In this document: piece by piece, positions 9,901 to 20,445 of the stretch
How the letters are laid out: each line of letters starts with the position of its first letter
Numbering within the stretch: position 1 is the first letter of the stretch
Made by a program: the position numbers and the translations under genes
Notes under the pieces: generated by a model
Databases searched by the model: none
What the model saw: the letters and a program-made list of their open reading frames with translations, nothing else
Told to the model about the DNA's origin: nothing
DNA from: Micractinium sp. NFX-FRZ
Lineage: Eukaryota > Chlorophyta > Trebouxiophyceae > Chlorellales > Chlorellaceae
DNA length: 64,000 bases
Direction: 5' to 3'
NCBI GenBank assembly: GCA_029339195.1
Contig: JAPTJF010000060.1
Span: forward strand, 62,001 to 126,000

Positions 9901-12900
9901 CAAAGCGGGAGGCAGAGCAGCAGGCGCGCCTCACCCCGGTCTCCTGGAGGGAGAACATGCCGATGGAGCCGTCGAAGAAGTCGGTGCGGGTGGCCACGTA
10001 GTACAGGGCCCAGGAGGAGACGGTGAGGTACAGGCCGTATGCGATGCCTGCATGTGGGCAAGGGTGGGGCAAAGGATTGAGGCCAGGACATTGCATGTTG
10101 GAGACGATCAAAGGGACCAGGACGCGACGGCGCTGCAGCCCGCCCCTTGTGTTGACACCCCTCCCGCCCGGCCCCCGGGCCCACCGTCTGTGAAGATGGA
10201 GAACAGGTTCCAGCGGTTGGGCAGGCGGGAGGGGGTGACGTTGTCCTTGGACAGGGCGATCATGGCACCGTCGTTGAATACGGCCAGCAGCACAATCAGG
10301 ATGGTGGGGAAGTACCTACACACACAGGAGGGGTCGAGGGGTTGGGGGCAGCAGTTTGTTGTTTTGAGGTAGAAAGGATGGGGAGAGCGGGCAGCACAAT
10401 CAGGATGGTGGGGAAGTACCTTCACACACAGGAGGGGGTGGGGCAACATGCGATTTGTGGTTTGTGGTAGAGAGGCTGGGCAGAGGGAGCATCGCGCCGC
10501 TCTTGCAGACAGCCAGGAGCATGATGAGGATGGTGGGGTGCAAGGGTGTAGCGAGAGGTGCAACGCGCAACCATGTGTGGCGTCATCCCCAGGCGTGCTC
10601 GCCTCCTGTGACATAACCAGCCATGCCCCCAGTTGACACGGTGGAGCGAGATGTGCAACCATGTGTAACGACGTCCCCAGGTGTACTACCCTGCTGCAGC
10701 AAAACAACAAACAGCAAAACAACGAATAGCAAAACAACAAATAGCAAAACACCAAATAGCAAAACCAGCCATGCCCCCAGGTGCGCCCTCACCAGTTGTA
10801 GATGACGGTGATGAGGCCAAAGGTGAAGCAGATGCGGAAGGTCATGGCCACAGTGTAGCGCGAGTAGGTGGTCATGCGCTGGAAGATCTTGCGTGCGCCT
10901 GCAGCGGGGGCGAGGCAAGCGAATCATGGGAGTGGAAGGTTGGCCCATTCACGGAGCGGGGCTGGGAGCGGGAGCAGGTGAGAAGGATGGCAGGCAATGC
11001 GGATGGGCATGGCCAACCAAAGGGCTGGCCCACGGAGCAGGCGGCTGCCTGCCAGCCAAGAACAACAACAACCGCCTGCCCAGTTGCTTTCGGCAGCCAC
11101 ACAACCACGTAAAGGCAAAGCAGGCGGCACAGGGCATGAAGGCAAGCAAGCTGCGTGTGGAAGGCACGGCAGGCAGGCAGCACAGGGGATGGATGGCTCA
11201 CCAATGACGGCGGTGATGATGGCGGACAGGCCGGGCTGCATGGTATTGGTTTCAAGAGTAGGGGGAGGGCAGCAGGAGAGGCAGGGTGAGCGAAGAGATG
11301 CGGGAAGCAGGGCGGGGCGGGATCGCCAGGCAGTAGCGGGCGAGGCGATCAGGCACGGTGGCAGCGCTTCCAGACGCGTGAGCTGTGGCAGGCAGGTGCC
11401 TCGCTGGCACGCGCACGGCGTCGCATGCCTGCCTCATCCATCCTGCTTTGGCCACCACACCCAGCCACCTCTCCCCTCGCAGCCCCGTCCAGCCCACCCA
11501 GGTGCGGTGTCCGCGGCACCGCATGCAACGCCACTGGCACCCGCCACCACCCTTCCCCCTCCCCTGCCCTGCTGCATACAGCACCCAGCCCCTCTTCTTG
11601 CCTCTACTGCTCACAGGCCCCTGCCCCGCCCAACAGCAGCCAACTCACCGCGGTGAGCACAATGTCGGCGGCACCACGGGCGGCGTCGGTGGCACCCGCC
11701 ACCGCAATGCCCACGTCGGCCTTCTTCAGGGCGGGGGCGTCGTTCACACCGTCGCCGGTCATGCCCACCATGTGCTTGCGCTCCTGGGCAAGGGGGAAGC
11801 AACGGGGAGGGGGCAGGTGGAGGGCAGGGGGGATCAGTGGGTGAGGCGGCAAGCCGGGAAACAGCGGATTGCTGTAGTTTGGCTGGGGAATGGTGACCAT
11901 CGGGGCTCGTGCTCGATAAGAACCCGCTCGCATCCCCACCACAACCAACAGGGTGCAAGGCCTCCATGGTTGAAAGCCCGCAAATAGCAGCAAGGCACAA
12001 ACCCACCTGCAAGATCATGACAAATCACGACAGGGTGACAGCTGTACACCAACACATGTGCACCAGCAGCACGACACCAACACAGCAGTACAGCAGTGTA
12101 CCTGCAGGGATCTTGACACATGTGCACCAGCAGCACTACACCAACACAGCAGTACAGCAGTACTAGCAGTGCACCTGCAGGGACCTTGACCCATGTGCAC
12201 CAGCAGCACTACACCAACACAGCAGTACAGCAGTACCTAGCAGTGCACCTGCAGGATCTTGACACATGTGCACCAGCAGCAGTACAAGAACACAGCAGTA
12301 CAGCAGTACAGCAGTGCACCTGCAGGATCTTGACAATCATGAACTTGTGCTCCGGGAAGACCTCGGCAAAGCCGTCTGCCTCCTCAATCAGGTCCTCCAC
12401 AGAGGCGTGGCCCTCCACCAGGCCAAAGCCCTGCTTGGCCTGCACAGAACAGACGGGTGGAAAGAAAGAAGACGGCATGGCAAGCGCATGGACGTCAGGG
12501 CACGAACATTGATCATGACGACCGACAAGCCAGCACGGCAAGAGCCATTCCCCCGCCCCCTCCCAAGCCAAAGGCAGCCGAGTAGCCACACGCAGCCATG
12601 TCACGGAGGTGCGCCCGCCGCCCGCCCTGCCCCCCAGTCCCTGCCCAGCCACATCACAAATCCACACATCACACACCTTGAGCAGCGCCTCGGTTGTGAA
12701 CCTGCAGAGGGACAAAGGAGGGCGCATTGGGGCGCAGCTTTCAGCATCAAGCGCAGATGCGTCGGGCCGGAAAAGGATGCGTATGCCAGCCACGGCACCT
12801 GCCCGCGCTCCCCCCTGCCACCTGCCGGTCTCTGCACACATCCATCCGTACTGTACCCTCCCCGCTCCCAAACCAGTCGAGGCATCCCACAGCAACCCAC

Positions 12901-15900
12901 ATGTTGGTGCCCATGCCCAGCTGCTTGGCCGTCTCCTTGCCAATCAGCAGCTGGTCGCCGGTGATCATCTTCACGCTGATGCCCATCTGCAGCAGCGCAG
13001 CGAGCCACAACACAATTCCGTGCTTTCACGTCAGAAAGCTGGCACCCCCGACTGTCTTCCTGCTTTCCCGCTGATGCCCCCGCTTGCCAACAACCAAAGC
13101 GTTATGCGCCCAAAGCTGTTAAGCGCTGCTCTTGTGTTGCAAGGCACCCGGCCGAATGCAGCCAGCTTCACGCCCCCTGTACGTGCCCGCCCTCGACCCC
13201 TCCCCTCCCCCTCCACCCCCTAGCCCCACCTCGTGGCACCGCTCGATCGTCTCCTTGGTGTCGTGGCGGGGAGGGTCAAACAGCGGCACCAGGCCCACCA
13301 TGACCCAGTGCGGGCCGTTGGGGCCGTCCTCTGCAGGACAGGGCATGCAATAAAAGTGCACAGAGGCCACGTCACCGATGGGCAACAAGCAGTGCGGGGC
13401 GGCGCAGTCGCCAGCGGCTGGTGTGGGGTGGCAGGGCAGACGTGTGAAGATGGCTGGCAATTTGTGAGCTCCTAACGGGAACCAGCCGCCAACCTGTGCT
13501 GCCTCAAGGGGTGCTACTTAGCAAAGGCAGGCGCGGGGCCTCCAGCTATGCTGCGTCAAAAGGGCTGCTCCCTTGTACAGGCAGGAAGGCAGGCAGGCAG
13601 GTGGGTGTGACTCACGTGAGCCGTCGCCCTCGGCCTTGGAGATGCCCAGCCCACGGAAGCCGCGGTTGGCGTACTCTGTGATCTTCACGGTGCACTCTGC
13701 CTCGATGTCGGCGGCGTTGTGGGCGTTGCGCACCACCACCTGCGCAGATGGTGTGTGGGTGAGGGTGAGGAGGGGGTAGGGACAGGCAGGTTGGGGTAGG
13801 AGCACACGCGCTCGTGGCGGCACTGTGTGGGCTTCTGGAGGTGTCAGCACGCCACGCAGGCCTCGACTGCCTCTCCCTGCGACCATCTGTCCCACCACCT
13901 CCACCCACCTGCGGCGCCCCCTTCACCTCGCGCATGCAAGAGGAGCTTGCAACACGCTTAAACACTCCCCTGACAGGTATTGCTTCGGCAAGTAGCACAT
14001 GCTCGACTGCCTCGCTCCCCCGCCCCCGATCCCCCCAGTCCAATTGCCACAGCCCTTCCAATCCCTTTTCAAGTAAGCAGTAACCAGCAATGCCCCACCT
14101 GCGGCGCCCCCTTCATCACGCGCTCCACCTTGCCCGTCTTCTTGTCCTTGACAAAGGCGATGGTGTACTTGTCGGTGGGGTTGAAGGGGATGAACTTGAC
14201 GATCTGGTGGTCCTCCCACAGGGAGTCGCTGCACGGCAGGGGGGAAGGCACGACAAGAGTTAAGGTTTAGGGTTTAGGGTCGCTGCACGGCAGGGGGAGG
14301 CACGACAAGAGTTAGGGTTTTGGGTTTAGGGTCACTGCACGGCAGGGGGAGGCACGGCAGGGAGGAGGCAGGGGGAGGCAGGGAGGAGGCGGGGGGAGGC
14401 GAGAGGCGGATGTGGGTGTGGGCAGACGTGGGTGGGGTGGGGTGGGGCAGGAGGGGTTTGCAAGGGTGCACCGAGGCCGCAGTCAGCAACGCTGCTCATA
14501 GGAGGGCCCGCTCTTAACAGCACGGCAGAAAATGAGGGCCTGCCCCTGCCCCCCTGCCCCCTTCCCCCCCCCCCCCCCCCCCCCTTTTGCACAAATTGGG
14601 GTGAGGCTTGTGGACACCCCATCTGGCAGGGCCCGCCCTGCTCACCGGTTGGGGTACGACTCGGCGGGACCCATGCCAATGGGCTCCTTCTCAGCGCTGC
14701 ACTCACACGCAAACCGCCGGTAAACCACCTGCCCGCCCTGCTCACCGGTTGGGGTACGACTCGTGCAGCACCATGTCGATTGGCTCCTCCGTGACGATGT
14801 TGGCCGACTTGGCGCCGTACTGGACAACCTGCAGGCGGTACGGTTCGGCGCCGGGGCAGATGGGGTAAGCACTCTACTCTGATGAGGGCGGAGGGTTTTG
14901 AAGTGTCCGATGCTCAGGCTCATATAGCCCAGGCGGGCGGCGTGGTGCCAGCACGACGGCTGAGCAGCTCAGTGGAGCCTCCAGCTGCAGCCCCTCCATG
15001 CTGTGCCGTGCTGTGCCATGCTGTGCCGTGCTGTGCAGTGCTGTGCCGTGCTGTGCCGCGCTGTGCGCACCTCCTCGATGCTGTGCCCGCTGAGCGGGTA
15101 CACGTTGACGTGGTCCACCGTCAGCTTGTTCAGCGTCAGGGTGCCCGTCTTGTCGGAGCACAGGATGTCCATGCCAGCCATCTCCTCCACGGCTGTGGAG
15201 GGGGCAAGGTGGGTTAGGTGGGCATGGTTAGTCATACAATTGAAAGAAAGCAAGGTGAGGGAGGGTTTGCGGGGAGCACAGGATGCCCATGCCAGCTTGT
15301 TTACACACTCCTCCACGCCTGCGGGCGGGGGAGGGCGAGTGCAGTGGTAGTAGGTAAGACAATTCGTCATAGTAATCAAGCAGCAGTGCAAACGGCCTAT
15401 ATCCCTCCCACCCACTCCCGCCCACCCAATGTGCACGACATAAGCGCCCTGCTAGGCCGCCGTCCACCACCACCCACCCACCCACCGTTCTTTCCCCTCT
15501 CCCCCGCTCGATACATTCACGGCATCCGGCCTGCCCCGCCCCGCCCTCCCATCTTCCCCTCCCTCCCCCGCTCAGGCACAGCCTCCAGCCTGCCCCGCCC
15601 GTTTGATCACGGGGGTCCAAGGTTGCTGCTGCACCGTTTTCGAGGTTCCCGCCCGCGCCGCCCACCCACCAGACATGCGCGACACGATGGCTCCCTCCTT
15701 GGCAAGGGTGAAGGCGCCCAGGGCCAGGGTGACGGACAGCACGGTGGGCATGGCTGCAGGCAGAGGTGGAGGCAGCAGGAGGCACACAGGTGATTGATCA
15801 GGCAGAGACACGAAGCAAGGCAAGAAGCAACAAGGCGGGAGGCAGCCGAGGGCATGGCAAGGCTGCCAAGGGGTGGCCAGGGAAGGGGCGGCACAGAGGC

Positions 15901-18900
15901 AGGAGGGATGGGCAGATGAGGTGGAGGGTCGGGTCAGGTGGCGCGCGTACGTCGCAGTGCAGCCCGACCACACAACGCCAATAGGGCGGCCTCTAAACCA
16001 CATCCCGCCTGCCTCACAACTCCAACCCCACCCCGCCCAGGGGCCCCATCGACCCACACCATGGGGATGCCTCACCCACGCCCGCCTGCACCCAAAAAAA
16101 AAACACCCACACCCGCCCAGGCCCGCCACCCACCAATGGGGATGCCTCCCACGATGATCACCAGCACTGCAGAGGAAGGAGAACAGGGGAGAGGCGGGAT
16201 GGGGTGTGTGAGCGGCGGTGCTGGTGGGCCGAGGCCGGTGGAGGCAGGCTGGGGCTTGCTGAATACGTGGTTGCTTGCGGCAACGTGTTGCGCTGCCACG
16301 GCTGCTCCGGAGTGCCGGCACTCGCGCAGGGCGCGAGCAATGCGCGCTGGCACGGTGTTGCGGGATTCATGTGCATGCGCTTGTCGCACGACAGGTGCCG
16401 AGTTGAAACTCACTGTTGGTCAGCGTGGGGCAGCCACCTGCGGGGGGGACATTGGAGGTGGGTGGGAGTGGCGATGCCAGCTCGTCAGCGCAGCCGGGGG
16501 GTGAAAGTGATAACAGTGTCAAGACTGGGCTGCCGCCGGCCCTGCAGGGCCACCTGCTCCAGCAACCACCCTGGCAGCCTCCCTGTGGAAACAGGCAACA
16601 GGCACACGCGCCTCCCCCGCCTGCCTGCCGGCCGGCCGGCCGGCCCCACATGTCACGAGGCCACCAGCCTCCCTTCTGCCCACCCTTTCGAGTGACCGCT
16701 TGTAAACTGTACCGCCAGCTCGACTGACCACCCACACCTGTACTGCCCAGCTGTGCCGACCGGCAACTCACCCTCTCCGCCGGAGCAGGCGTGCTTGTAG
16801 TGCCCAAACTGCACCGCCAGCTCGATGACGATCCACACTGTGGCAATAGATGGGGATGACTTGTGATTATGGGGTGAAAGCCAATCGAGCTTGGAAATAG
16901 CTGGTTTTCTGCGAAATCTATTGAGGTAGAGCGTATCGGAGCCAAATAAAAGTATTTGGTTAGCAAGGTAAAAAGGAGGTAGAGCACTCATTGGGTGATG
17001 GTGGCCCAAAGCCTTACCTCCGATTGTGACAAGGCAGAGGGCTCCAATGCGGGTCATCACCTTTTGCAGGTTGGCCTCCTGCAAACGGTTGGTGGAGCGG
17101 GGGCAAATTGAGGCACACAGGTGAAGTTACAAAAATCCGAAATCACAACTCAAGTTATTCCGCATACTAAAAGTCAGCTGCTGCATGCTGACCTCCTGCT
17201 AAAAGTGTGCAACTGGCGCAGCATCAACGGCATGGGCACAGCGGTGGCAGGCGGGCGAATGGAGGCAGTGCCGCCGCTGTAGCAGCCGCTGGGTGCTGCG
17301 CCACACCCCTGGTTCACCTCCAAAGCCCCTGCCAATGCTGTCCCTGGAACCATCTTTGCTCTGAGTATTCCAACCGCTTGGCTGATACGGCGACGCTGCA
17401 CGCCACGCAGCCTTTACTGCAGTATCCCACACCAACACAGGTTGAGGCTCACCTGGTTGGCGGATCCCAGCAGGGCGGCGGCGCGGCCGAAGAAGGTCTG
17501 CATGCCGGTGGCGTACACCACGCAGTGGCGCTCGCCCTGCTTGATGGTGGAGCCTGCGCGGGGGCGGGTGGGGAAGGGCGGAGGGGTGCGGTGCGGTTTT
17601 GGGAGCAGCACAGGTGGGTGAGGGGCGGGGGTTGCCGCTGCCGGCACAGCCACCAGAGAAAAGCACGGCAGGCAGGAGTGGGAGCAGCTAAAGTGCGCAG
17701 GGACGGGGCGGGACGGAGAGTGCGTTGCGTGGCTCACCGGCGAAGGCGACGTTGCCGGAGAACTTCTTGACGGGCAGGGACTCGCCGGTCAGTGCGGCCT
17801 GGTCGCACTGCAGGCAGGTTGATGGGGTGGGCGGGGCAGGCAGGAGCGGGGCGGTCAGGATGGCCAGGGGTTCAACGTGCAGGAGGCAGTGACAGCAGCA
17901 GCAAGGCGGCCTGGTTGTGCCTGCACCTATGTCTCATCTTGGCAGGCCTCGCGCTGGGCCCCTCTTCTGCTAAACAGGGTTTTCGAGCTGCCTTGCATCT
18001 GGCCAAGCGATGCCTCCCCCCGTCCATACGCTCACCCCAGTGCACCCAGCACACTCAACCCACCACCCACCACCGCCGCTCCGCCCGCCCTGCTGTGTGT
18101 ATGGCGCCCCACCTGCAGCGGCGTCTCGTCCTCGGGCCGCCCAGTGGAGCCCTCCTCCGCCAGGATCTTGATGTCTGCCGGCACAATGTCGCCCAGCCGA
18201 ATGATGACCACATCACCGGGCACCAGCTCAGCGGCATCTATGGTGATCACTTGGCCGTCTCGCAGCGCCTTGGCCTTGGGGGCCAGGGCTGCGGCAGGGG
18301 CGGGACAGGGGCGTGGTGCGGGGTGAGTGCGGGGTGAGCGCGGCTTCTGTGGTGAGGTCAGAGTGCAGCCGGGGAGGAAAGAAGGCGGTGCTGCCCTTAC
18401 GAGGAAGAGCGCCTCAGTGGCCTCTCATCTGCCTTGCCCGCTGCACGGGACCGCACCCCACCCCACCACACCACACCCCGTCCCGCAACCCCAGGCGTGC
18501 CAAATTACATCATCATGGTTTGTTGTTTTTTACCATCATCATAGCTGCCCTCCCGCCCATCCCTTGTGAGCCGAGTTCCTTAAGAGGGAAGCAGTTGCCC
18601 CCGCACCTGAGGTGAGCGCCTTGATGGCCTTGTCTGCATTGGCCTCCTCCACGTAAGAGATGGTGGCGTTGACAAACAGCAGGGCGATGATGAGCGCAAA
18701 GTCGGCGTAGTCCTGATAGGGGGCAGTGAGGGAACAGTGAGCGGCGGGGTTGACAGATGGCAGCGCTGGGGCAGGGCCTGGGCAAAGTACACGAGAAGGA
18801 GGCGGCGGATGCCACCTCCCCACTCCCCACAATTCAGGAGGCCAGGCAGGCAGGCTGACAGGCAGGCGGGCAGGCACGCGGGCAGGCGTGCAAGCGGGCA

Positions 18901-20445
18901 GGCAGGCAGGCAGGCAAGTAGGCATGCATGCGGGCAGGCAGGCGGGCTCACCAGCAGGGCGATGGCGATGATGGCAGCTGCCTCCATGGCCCAGGACAGA
19001 GGGTTCCACATGTACTGAAGGGGCAGGAGAGTGGAGGGGCGGGGGAGCAGGGGAGCAGGGAGGTGAATCAGGGGGAGGAAGGCTCCACAGGCGCCGAGGG
19101 GGAGGGCTCAGCGATGCTGGGTGTTGGGACGGGCAGGGGGGCACGGGGCGGTTCCATTTCAGGCGCCCGCCGCCGCCCGGTCACCCCAAGTGTGCCAATG
19201 CACACTTTTCCCTTGCAGCCCGATGCCCCCCGCCTGTGTCCTGAACCCAGCCTCCCCACCCCGCACGAACGCGCCTCCCCGCCGACGCTCGTGCGCACCA
19301 AGCTCACCAGCAACGCTTCTGCTGCCCCTGCACGCCCCACCCCTTCCCCCTTGGGGCACAACCCAACCCCAGTTGCAGCCTTGTCCCCCCGCCCCGCCTC
19401 CCCTGGTGTGTGTGTGTGTGCCACCCCAGCACTCACCCCCAGATACACCAGCAGTGCGCTGCGGCTCTCCTCGGGAAGCTTGTTGGGCCCATACTCCACC
19501 AGCCGCCGGGCGGCTTCCTCACCGCTCAATCCCTTGTGGCTGGCCTGCAGCGGGAGGGGGCGCGCGTGGGTGCATGTGGGTGCTGAGGCCGGGCGGCAGC
19601 AGCGGCGCATGCATGTAAAATCGGGTGCGTCAAACTTGTGCCGTGCGACTGCAGGTGAGGCGGAGTGCAACTCTGTGATAGAGTGCTGGTCCCATTGCGG
19701 TTCTGTAGCAGGCATGTGCGTGCGTGGCAGGGGGGGAGGGGAGGCATGGTTCTCTGGCAGCGGGCTCAGCGTGGCAGCGAGATGAGATGTGCCAGGTGGC
19801 GAGGGGGCAGATCCTGGGGCCAGATCCCAAAGGATGAGAGCGGCGGCAGAAGGGGGCAGTTTGTGGGACATTATTTGGTGCGTTAAGCGGACATGTTTTA
19901 GTGGGGGAATTCTTGTGAGGGCTCTGCAGGCCGCAGACACTGCAAGTCCCAGGCCAAAGATGCTTTGCCCTAGGCCCTAGGGCATCAGAGGCAGCGCCAC
20001 GGTGCGGCAGCAGCGCGGGGGGCGGGCCCGCCTGGCCTGGCCCCACCTTGAGGATGGTCAGGGCCTGCTCCTCGCTGATGTCCTTGAAATCAATCTCCTG
20101 CTCCGCTTCTCCACCTACTCCGACCGCGGTCTCGCCTGCAGGGGGCGTGCAGCGGGTATGTGGGCGGCAGCTGGGGGACGCGCTCGACAGCTGGCGGAGG
20201 TGCTCCTGCGGTGGGCCCACTGCCGAGCGGGCGAGGGGCGGGCCGCGGGCGCCGGCGATGGCCTAGGAGCACGTGCCCCTTGCTGTCCAGGGCGGCAGGG
20301 CCGGGCTCGGAAGCCCAGAGAGGATGAGGGAGCACATGCAATCTGCTGGGCTAGGGCACCATATGAGGCCGCTTTAAGTTGCAATACCGATGCATTGCAG
20401 TTTGATCATGGGGGGAGGGGTGTGAAGCTCACCGTTCTTCGCCAT
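6908..20445 (-). CDS. Plasma-membrane type P-type H+-ATPase (P3A)
   Basis: ATP-driven proton pump of the P3A family; 34 exons, 1035 aa predicted. Starts of the exons (5' base): 20445, 20135, 19544, 19014, 18712, 18288, 17807, 17553, 17078, 16837, 16437, 16166, 15753, 15192, 14828, 14228, 13739, 13330, 12986, 12701, 12439, 11783, 11235, 10898, 10315, 10047, 9585, 9122, 8929, 8487, 8251, 7707, 7396, 7057. Motifs: TGES (192-195), GIPIAMPTVLS in M4 (from 300), phosphorylation site D345 in [13 protein letters not shown] (439), MITGD (525), TGDGVND (604-610). Exons as small as 13, 24, 25 and 33 nt keep phase. The start context is good, but the frame stays open upstream. An M7-M8 loop of about 46 residues carries four cysteines. 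The tail repeats RMSMSRVS and ends LVKVH, without the land-plant 14-3-3 motif. The intron at 8835-8488 has a GC donor. Confidence 0.95.
10291..10440. repeat. Duplicated acceptor plus exon start in an ATPase intron
   Basis: The acceptor and first 25 or so coding bases of the exon 10315-10185 ([10 protein letters not shown] on the minus strand) recur almost unchanged at 10389-10427, upstream in the same intron, with the CACACACAGGAGGGG flank and a GTTTGTTGT/GTTTGTGGT block also copied. A weaker third trace lies at 10508-10540. Confidence 0.75.
10695..10765 (+). repeat. 15-bp tandem repeat in an ATPase intron
   Basis: About four units of a 15-base AT-richer motif (AGCAAAACAACAAAT with variants). 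It stands out from the GC-rich surroundings and lies 30 bases from the splice donor at 10792. Confidence 0.85.
12045..12335. repeat. 72-75 bp minisatellite built on an exon end and its splice donor
   Basis: Four units spaced 71-75 bp contain CCTGCAG-GATCTTGAC at about 12101, 12173, 12248 and 12319. On the minus strand this is the exon end coding KILQ plus the donor GTGCAC. Only the last unit is the functional boundary of the exon 12439-12320. The others sit in the intron. Each unit also holds CACCAGCAGCACTACACCAA or a variant. Confidence 0.9.
13905..14125. repeat. Intronic copy of the KGAPQ exon end and donor
   Basis: The exon end coding RVMKGAPQ with donor GTGGGG (14125-14097, minus strand) recurs at about 13935-13907, coding REVKGAPQ with donor GTGGGT. 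The copy lies in the following intron. Confidence 0.75.
14225..14350. repeat. Triplicated acceptor region with telomere-like TTTAGGG units
   Basis: The acceptor block (TCGCTGCACGGCAGGGG and GGAGGCACGACAAGAGTTA variants) occurs at about 14226, 14278 and 14331. The spacers contain GGTTTAGGGTTTAGGGT (14264-14280) and a similar block at 14315-14332, matching the plant-type telomere unit TTTAGGG. Only the copy at 14228 is used by the coding model. Confidence 0.8.
14555..14590 (+). repeat. Poly(C) tract in an ATPase intron
   Basis: An almost pure run of more than 20 C residues followed by TTTTGC. Length is likely to vary between reads or strains. Confidence 0.85.
14637..14790. repeat. Intronic copy of the exon end coding SYPNR and its donor
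   Basis: The minus-strand exon end coding [14 protein letters not shown] (14788-14746) recurs at 14690-14646 as [14 protein letters not shown], with the same CGGTGAGCAGG donor context. The copy remains coding-like, so it could be read as an alternative exon end. Confidence 0.85.
15000..15066 (+). repeat. GCTGTGCCGT decamer tandem repeat next to a splice donor
   Basis: Six or seven imperfect copies of GCTGTGCCGT directly abut the donor of the exon containing the DKTGT motif (donor at 15070-15069, minus strand). Confidence 0.8.
15156..15325. repeat. Intronic copy of the acceptor and exon start before DKTGT
   Basis: GGAGCACAGGATG.CCATGCCAGC occurs at 15156-15179 (exon, coding AGMDILCS) and at 15274-15297 in the upstream intron. 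The CTCCTCCACG.CTG acceptor flank is also copied. Confidence 0.8.
16690..16838. repeat. Intronic copy of an ATPase exon start
   Basis: The minus-strand exon start coding [14 protein letters not shown] (16837-16793) recurs, decayed, at about 16737-16690 in the following intron. The shared block is CAGTTTGG/CAGTTTAC with CGAGCTGGCGGT.CAGTTT. Confidence 0.65.
16838..17017 (+). pseudogene. Mitochondrial LSU rRNA fragment forming a whole ATPase intron
   Basis: The 180-nt intron between the exons 17078-17018 and 16837-16772 reads, on the plus strand, as bacterial-type 23S rRNA domain II. Visible conserved blocks in order are GGATGACTTGTG, GGGGTGAAAG, CCAATCGAGC, AAATAGCTGGTTTTC, GCGAAAT, TTGAGGTAGAGCG and GAGGTAGAGCACT, then GGTGGCCCAAAGCCTTACC. 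The match runs from about 16849 to 17016, so it fills nearly the whole intron. The donor (GTAAGG on the minus strand) lies in the rRNA-like sequence. Base composition is far more AT-rich than the surroundings. The GGTAGAGC form and AT-richness suggest mitochondrial rather than plastid origin; this is inference from memory of rRNA sequence. Confidence 0.85.
18838..18955 (+). repeat. GGCA tetranucleotide-rich repeat
   Basis: About 110 bases dominated by GGCA units with GGCG and TGCA variants, ending at a splice donor. Similar GGCA runs occur in other introns at 8938-8998, 13580-13602 and 47298-47326, so this is a common intron filler here. Confidence 0.85.

What the first reader, a model, noticed from the sequence alone, without database searches (positions are those of the whole stretch)
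16838..17017. A spliceosomal intron made of mitochondrial rRNA
The H+-ATPase intron between the exons coding TIGVWIVIEL is, over almost its full 180 nt, an antisense piece of organelle 23S-type rRNA domain II (GGATGACTTGTG, AAATAGCTGGTTTTC, AGGTAGAGCACT and others in order). The coding phase on both sides is intact and the joined protein matches P3A pumps, so the insert behaves as an intron. Introns of mitochondrial DNA origin are known but rare. Here the donor GTAAGG lies in the rRNA-derived sequence itself.
Basis: partly seen in the sequence, partly recalled or inferred. Interest (0 to 1): 0.88.

Follow-up and report, generated by a model that had tools for sequence, protein, structure and literature searches.

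The report
Nuclear intron made of mitochondrial rRNA
In a green alga, a piece of mitochondrial ribosomal RNA gene landed in the middle of a proton-pump gene in the nucleus and now looks like an ordinary intron whose two splice sites both come from mitochondrial DNA.

Summary
The 180 nt at 17017..16838 (minus strand) interrupt a P3A H+-ATPase gene and match the alga's own mitochondrial large-subunit rRNA gene (contig C837). Outside one variable hairpin, 149 columns are identical and one base is lost. Organelle genome lengths point to Micractinium rhizosphaerae NFX-FRZ. Both splice sites lie in mitochondrial sequence. Of 55 GT..AG removals tried, only this one restores the orthologous peptide; 40 of 40 homologues aligned lack the insert.

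No RNA data were available. The insert is 60 codons long and open in frame, so an intact frame does not prove splicing. Its place inside a conserved hydrophobic segment makes splicing likelier than translation.

A second case supports this: a 193-nt cox1-derived stretch in a flavin-reductase-domain gene would stop the frame if kept, and its GT-AG removal restores the domain.

mtDNA-derived introns are already reported (Bigelowiella, Daphnia), so this is a new, unusually clean member. Gain, rather than refilling of an older intron, is likely but untested.

The parts
16838..17017 (-).
17018..17078 (-). upstream exon of the H+-ATPase, [20 protein letters not shown]; ends GGAG (phase 1)
16772..16837 (-). 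downstream exon, [23 protein letters not shown]; starts TGTGG
16937..16967 (+). variable rRNA hairpin: 31 nt here, 6 nt in present mtDNA; a similar hairpin is kept by another nuclear mtDNA fragment on C66
   Evidence: fold -9.1 kcal/mol; C66 copy -10.2; present mtDNA none
12440..20140 (-). approximate extent of the part of the P3A H+-ATPase gene whose exon borders were mapped by eye; further exons lie below 12440
16704..16737 (-). decayed 34-nt copy of the start of the downstream exon, inside the next intron
   Evidence: 30 of 34 identical, one gap

Best explanation
[quoted passage not shown] In the orientation in which it landed it begins with GTAAGG and ends with TATTGCCACAG, so the spliceosome can use it directly as a GT-AG intron and the protein is unchanged. 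Shown: mitochondrial origin; both splice sites inside the mitochondrial sequence; exact restoration of the conserved peptide on removal; a position between pump exons on a 196-kb contig. Inferred: that it is spliced in vivo; that the site was uninterrupted before; that break repair put it there.
For: 149 columns identical to own mtDNA outside one hairpin, with one 1-nt indel. Of 55 GT..AG pairs at least 50 nt apart, 1 restores the M. conductrix peptide. 40 of 40 homologues aligned run through the site without extra residues; they are the top 40 of 120 listed and 8000 scored. Composition is foreign: GC 0.45, against 0.57-0.71 for the 14 other stretches paired as introns; the 14 other donors mapped by eye are GTG, this one is GTA. 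A second whole-mtDNA intron lies on C1 (cox1, 193 nt): kept, it would stop the frame directly after VVSRM; removed, it gives VVSRMETSDHWVTYAEV, and the joined peptide aligns without a break to a Tolypothrix sequence (58% over 98 aa). Organelle scraps occur at many nuclear places: 20 matched the 38% of mtDNA searched, a lower bound, and pieces 100% identical to plastid DNA lie side by side on C2 and C134.
Against: No RNA evidence. The insert is a multiple of three and stop-free in frame: 8.1% of dinucleotide shuffles are stop-free, times one third for length. No orthologous DNA could be fetched, so absence of an intron there in relatives is known only at protein level. At the left junction there is no microhomology and at the right only AG, or TGTGG one base off, so the repair signature is weak. 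By base counts a random mtDNA fragment begins with GT and ends with AG in only about 0.24% of cases, so an instantly functional intron needs luck or selection. The odds here are for capture into an uninterrupted exon plus splicing. I put 'mtDNA-made spliced intron, gained or refilled' at about 0.9.
Confidence: 0.7

Rival explanations
1. Replacement, not gain: the gene already had an intron at this site, and break repair swapped its body for a mitochondrial fragment, joining at the GTNAG and CAG that any intron offers. The intron is mtDNA-made and spliced but the position is old.
For: A decayed copy of the downstream exon (30 of 34 nt) begins about at the exon border rather than further upstream, and it is more diverged than the insert is from mtDNA. 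That would fit a border older than the insert. The gene is intron-rich, with 14 other donors mapped by eye.
Against: The whole stretch from the first GT to the last AG matches mtDNA, with no native intron remnant at either end. The other 14 donors mapped read GTG, so a native donor would probably not have read GTAAGG. The exon copy is only 34 nt and its start point is uncertain.
Confidence: 0.2
2. In-frame coding insertion: the 60 codons are kept in the mRNA and translated (constitutively or as a retained 'exitron'), as in reports of organelle DNA creating exon patches (recalled).
For: 180 nt, no stop in frame, so the reading frame runs through.
Against: It would put 60 residues, 29 of them polar or charged by my count, inside a hydrophobic segment that has no extra residues in 40 of 40 homologues aligned and aligns without a break at this point to AHA2 (5KSD). 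GT-AG signals sit exactly at its ends.
Confidence: 0.06
3. Assembly artefact or pseudogene: mitochondrial reads were misjoined into the contig, or the pump gene is dead.
For: Near-identity to mtDNA.
Against: The insert differs from the mtDNA contig by a 31-versus-6-nt hairpin and a 1-nt indel, so it was not simply copied from it. A similar hairpin is present in a second fragment on C66. A misjoin would not be expected to start and stop at splice sites. The exons read here are open, and the joined peptide is 85% identical to the M. conductrix protein.
Confidence: 0.04

Closest known systems
Bigelowiella natans GTPase-gene intron of mtDNA origin (Curtis & Archibald 2010; known here from passages in PMC4757882 and PMC3443670, paper not read)
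   Same: A spliceosomal intron in a nuclear gene derived from a fragment of the alga's own mtDNA.
   Different: Different lineage and gene. Here the source is LSU rRNA in antisense and a second, cox1-derived case lies in the same genome. Which mtDNA region the Bigelowiella intron came from was not seen.
Daphnia gained intron homologous to the mitochondrial 16S rRNA (Li et al. 2009; known here from passages in PMC3443670 and PMC4202315, paper not read)
   Same: A new intron similar to mitochondrial large-subunit rRNA DNA, attributed to repair of staggered breaks.
   Different: An animal, studied for gained introns; details of that intron were not seen. Here there is no presence/absence data, but the match to mtDNA is almost perfect and ends at both splice sites.
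Ordinary NUMTs inside existing introns
   Same: A short mtDNA fragment in a nuclear intron; six other NUMTs of this genome look like this by eye (C61, C65, C66, C189, C420, C742).
   Different: Here the NUMT is the whole intron, splice sites included (2 of 18 NUMTs whose edges were read are a whole or nearly whole intron).

Membership tests
Spliceosomal (U2-type GT-AG) intron | GT...AG borders whose removal restores a conserved reading frame | tested here: met
   1 of 55 GT-AG pairs at least 50 nt apart restores the ortholog peptide, and it is this one
Spliceosomal (U2-type GT-AG) intron | Removed from transcripts | not testable with these tools
   No RNA data held
Spliceosomal (U2-type GT-AG) intron | Donor fits U1 consensus; pyrimidine-rich acceptor; branch point | tested here: inconclusive
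   GTAAGG and CCCCATCTATTGCCACAG look good by eye (consensus recalled); no splice-site or branch-point model was run
NUMT (nuclear copy of mtDNA) | Near-identity to the organism's own mtDNA, flanked by nuclear DNA | tested here: met
Intron of mtDNA origin | Whole intron with both splice sites drawn from mtDNA | tested here: met
   Match runs 17017 to 16838 and includes both splice sites; 5 bp of exon past the acceptor (TGTGG) also match mtDNA after a 1-nt gap
Intron of mtDNA origin | Site uninterrupted in related species (recent gain) | tested here: inconclusive
Intron gain by double-strand-break repair | Short direct repeats or microhomology at the borders | tested here: inconclusive
   Window: none left, AG right. 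C1 case: CATG shared left; GCAGGG right resembles a GCATGG repeat (inferred)
Introner (mobile intron family) | Many similar copies in introns | tested here: not met
   Whole-genome DNA search gave 3 places: itself, mtDNA, one shorter fragment (that tool skips very common words)
Group I/II organellar intron | Catalytic intron structure | tested here: not met
   No Rfam family at gathering score in the window; only LSU rRNA at E up to 0.1 around the insert

The most novel reading that the evidence does not exclude
Micractinium rhizosphaerae repeatedly turns organelle DNA scraps into spliceosomal introns through break repair: at least two introns, from LSU rRNA and cox1 and apparently of different ages, are made of mtDNA. 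The younger one still reads open in frame and preserves a mitochondrial rRNA hairpin that the living mitochondrion has lost. Organelle capture would then be a continuing intron source in a green alga.
Probability: 0.55. Interest if true: 0.65.

Novelty: new member of a known kind. Interest (0 to 1): 0.52.

Why it matters
Where new introns come from is an old open question, and gains with a traceable source are few. A 2012 review lists 5 unambiguous events under double-strand-break repair (PMC3443670, Table 1, passage seen). This case has the donor DNA, target and junctions readable to the base, so splicing strength, age and repair mechanism can be tested directly. A second case in the same genome allows a young and an apparently older mtDNA intron to be compared. 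The insert is also, by inference, a small fossil of an earlier mitochondrial rRNA.

Tried and rejected
Plastid or bacterial origin: rejected, since the match is to the alga's own mitochondrial contig. Introner or repeat family: rejected. Group I/II intron: rejected. Paralogues as an uninterrupted control (C313, C265): matches do not cover the junction. Other algal mtDNA in the viral collection: 0 matches to a 29-base pattern. Plastid-derived pieces looked at in 5 places (C2, C134, C333, C255, C178), of 11 contigs besides C838 matched by one 10-kb plastid piece: none was recognised as a whole intron by eye, and the edges on C134 are unclear.

Literature: eight searches. Judged from the titles and abstract starts listed (up to 20 per search; searches had more hits than were listed), none was on mtDNA-derived introns in Micractinium or Chlorellaceae. 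The library is open-licence PMC only. Passages were seen of PMC4757882, PMC3443670, PMC12730881, PMC9922002, PMC4202315 and PMC2809761 (in the last only a reference-list line); no paper was read whole.

Errors and limits of mine. The typed pump peptide left out small exons and carried one wrong residue (C before AVLVII); later peptides have GGCPTLTNM there. In one search the borders were chosen by eye, one acceptor motif was not found and others were not listed, so at least three of the listed introns (16771-16167, 16133-15193, 15070-14229) span small exons; the GC range includes these. In the NUMT count I left out matches inside C837 and one 67% match on the plastid contig C838. C805 and C819 are short contigs (about 12 and 11 kb) whose nuclear status I did not test; they are counted among the 20.

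Full report
WHAT IS THERE. The window is C60:62001-126000 of a 66.07 Mb assembly in 838 contigs. Contigs C837 and C838 are 74,426 and 120,168 bp. Table 3 of PMC9922002 (passages seen) gives exactly these lengths for the mitochondrial and chloroplast genomes of Micractinium rhizosphaerae NFX-FRZ, so that is very probably the organism (inference from two exact lengths). That paper annotated genes with a model trained on M. conductrix transcripts; the passages I saw mention no transcripts from this strain.

THE MATCH. The 201 bases around the finding match three places in the genome: themselves, C837:41042-41203 (E 5e-55) and a shorter piece on C66. The C837 piece lies in a full-length LSU rRNA gene (RF02541, 1684 bits). 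Compared letter by letter, insert and mtDNA agree in three blocks of 39, 60 and 50 columns, separated by one 1-nt indel and one loop. At the left the mtDNA match stops at GTAAGG: the mtDNA reads ATCA before it, the exon reads GGAG. At the right it runs to CACAG, after which the mtDNA reads ATGTGGG and the exon TGTGGATC. Both splice sites are therefore mitochondrial sequence. The insert is antisense to the pump gene.

THE LOOP. The insert has a 31-nt stretch where present mtDNA has 6 nt. The fragment on C66, which has different ends and 87% identity to the insert over 90 bp, carries a similar long version. Both nuclear versions fold into a hairpin (-9.1 and -10.2 kcal/mol); the mtDNA version does not fold. 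The simplest reading (inference) is that the mitochondrial gene had this hairpin when both pieces entered the nucleus and has lost it since. It also argues against an assembly misjoin.

THE GENE. Exons on both sides belong to a P3A H+-ATPase (Pfam PF00122 and PF00690; closest protein M. conductrix, 85%; aligned to AHA2 5KSD without a break at the site). In 40 of 40 homologues aligned (the top 40 of 120 listed; 8000 scored), the segment corresponding to TIGVWIVIEL has no extra residues. Removing 17017-16838 restores it exactly; of 55 GT..AG pairs at least 50 nt apart in the two-exon region, this is the only one that does. The 14 other stretches paired as introns have GC 0.57-0.71 and this one 0.45 (at least three of the 14 span small exons); the 14 other donors mapped by eye begin GTG, this one GTA.

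A CAUTION. 180 is 3 x 60 and the insert has no stop in the gene's frame. Shuffles of the insert are stop-free in 8.1% of cases, so length and openness together are roughly a 3% coincidence. I still favour splicing, because translation would place 60 residues, 29 of them polar or charged (my count), in a conserved hydrophobic segment, and because splice sites sit at the exact ends.

A SECOND CASE. A search with other mtDNA pieces found, on C1:61073-61264, a cox1 fragment 81% identical to today's mtDNA ('cox1' is read from the translation, recalled). It sits in the last part of a gene with a flavin reductase domain (PF01613, E 4e-17; flavodiiron-type, by recall). Its flanks are GTGGTGTCCCGCAT and GGAGACGAGC, with GTAAGTATT...TTTTTGCTGCAG between them, 193 nt, of which the last four bases fall outside the mtDNA match. 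Read through, the frame stops directly after VVSRM; spliced, it gives VVSRMETSDHWVTYAEV, and the joined peptide matches a Tolypothrix sequence without a break (58% over 98 aa). The mtDNA reads GTTAAGT where the intron reads GTAAGT, so its donor seems to have arisen by loss of one T. The GCAGGG at its end resembles a repeat of the GCATGG expected at the uninterrupted site (inference). So here the acceptor AG may come from the duplicated target rather than from mtDNA. This second intron must be spliced if the gene works.

HOW COMMON. I searched 28,060 of 74,426 mtDNA bases (38%) against the genome. Twenty places outside the organelle contigs match, including the window; the tool scores only the best candidates, so this is a lower bound. 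I read the edges of 18; two (C162, C119) were not fetched. In 2 of the 18 the fragment is the whole intron or nearly so. By eye six others lie inside a longer intron (C61, C65, C66, C189, C420, C742); for the remaining ten I could not tell. One 10-kb plastid piece matched 11 other contigs besides C838, among them three abutting 100%-identical pieces on C2 and a plastid-plus-mitochondrial patchwork on C134. Such patchworks are what end-joining with filler DNA would give (established view of NUMT/NUPT formation, recalled).

MECHANISM. Most likely a break in the exon was repaired with a mitochondrial scrap that happened to start with GT and end with AG. By base counts about 0.24% of random mtDNA fragments do; with stronger consensus ends (GTRAG, YAG) about 2 in 100,000. 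The alternative, that an older intron at this site was refilled with mtDNA, cannot be excluded. A decayed 34-nt copy of the downstream exon in the next intron begins about at the exon border, which hints weakly at an old border. I put a spliced mtDNA-made intron at about 0.9 overall, and gain at an uninterrupted site at 0.7.

KNOWN KIND. An intron of mtDNA origin is reported in Bigelowiella (PMC4757882 passages) and one similar to mitochondrial 16S rRNA in Daphnia (PMC3443670 and PMC4202315 passages). PMC3443670 counts 5 unambiguous events under break repair as of 2012. PMC12730881 (passages) reports that most plastid and nucleomorph fragments in another alga's nucleus lie in introns. This finding is a clean new member, with an apparently older case in the same genome. 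It is not a new kind.

Noticed in passing
G000:C1:61073-61264 (L051 1501-1692): Second mtDNA-made intron: a cox1 fragment, 193 nt GT-AG, in a flavin-reductase-domain gene; the donor GTAAGT differs from the mitochondrial GTTAAGT by loss of one T.
   Followed up: partly
L005 4923-5047 (C66): Another nuclear LSU rRNA fragment that keeps a hairpin now absent from the alga's mtDNA.
   Followed up: partly
L077 156-300 (C2) and L078 121-313 (C134): Mosaic insertions: three abutting plastid pieces on C2; two plastid pieces and one mitochondrial piece in one AT-rich patch on C134.
   Followed up: partly
window 16704-16737: Decayed partial copy of the downstream pump exon inside the following intron, starting about at the exon border.
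   Followed up: partly
L061 1341-1778 (C805): Compound mitochondrial insertion (278-bp piece, 89%, atp1-like by eye, plus a 62-bp piece from elsewhere in mtDNA) with GC-rich flanks.
   Followed up: no
L004 3306-3477 (C837): Group I intron hit directly beside the mitochondrial LSU rRNA hit.
   Followed up: no
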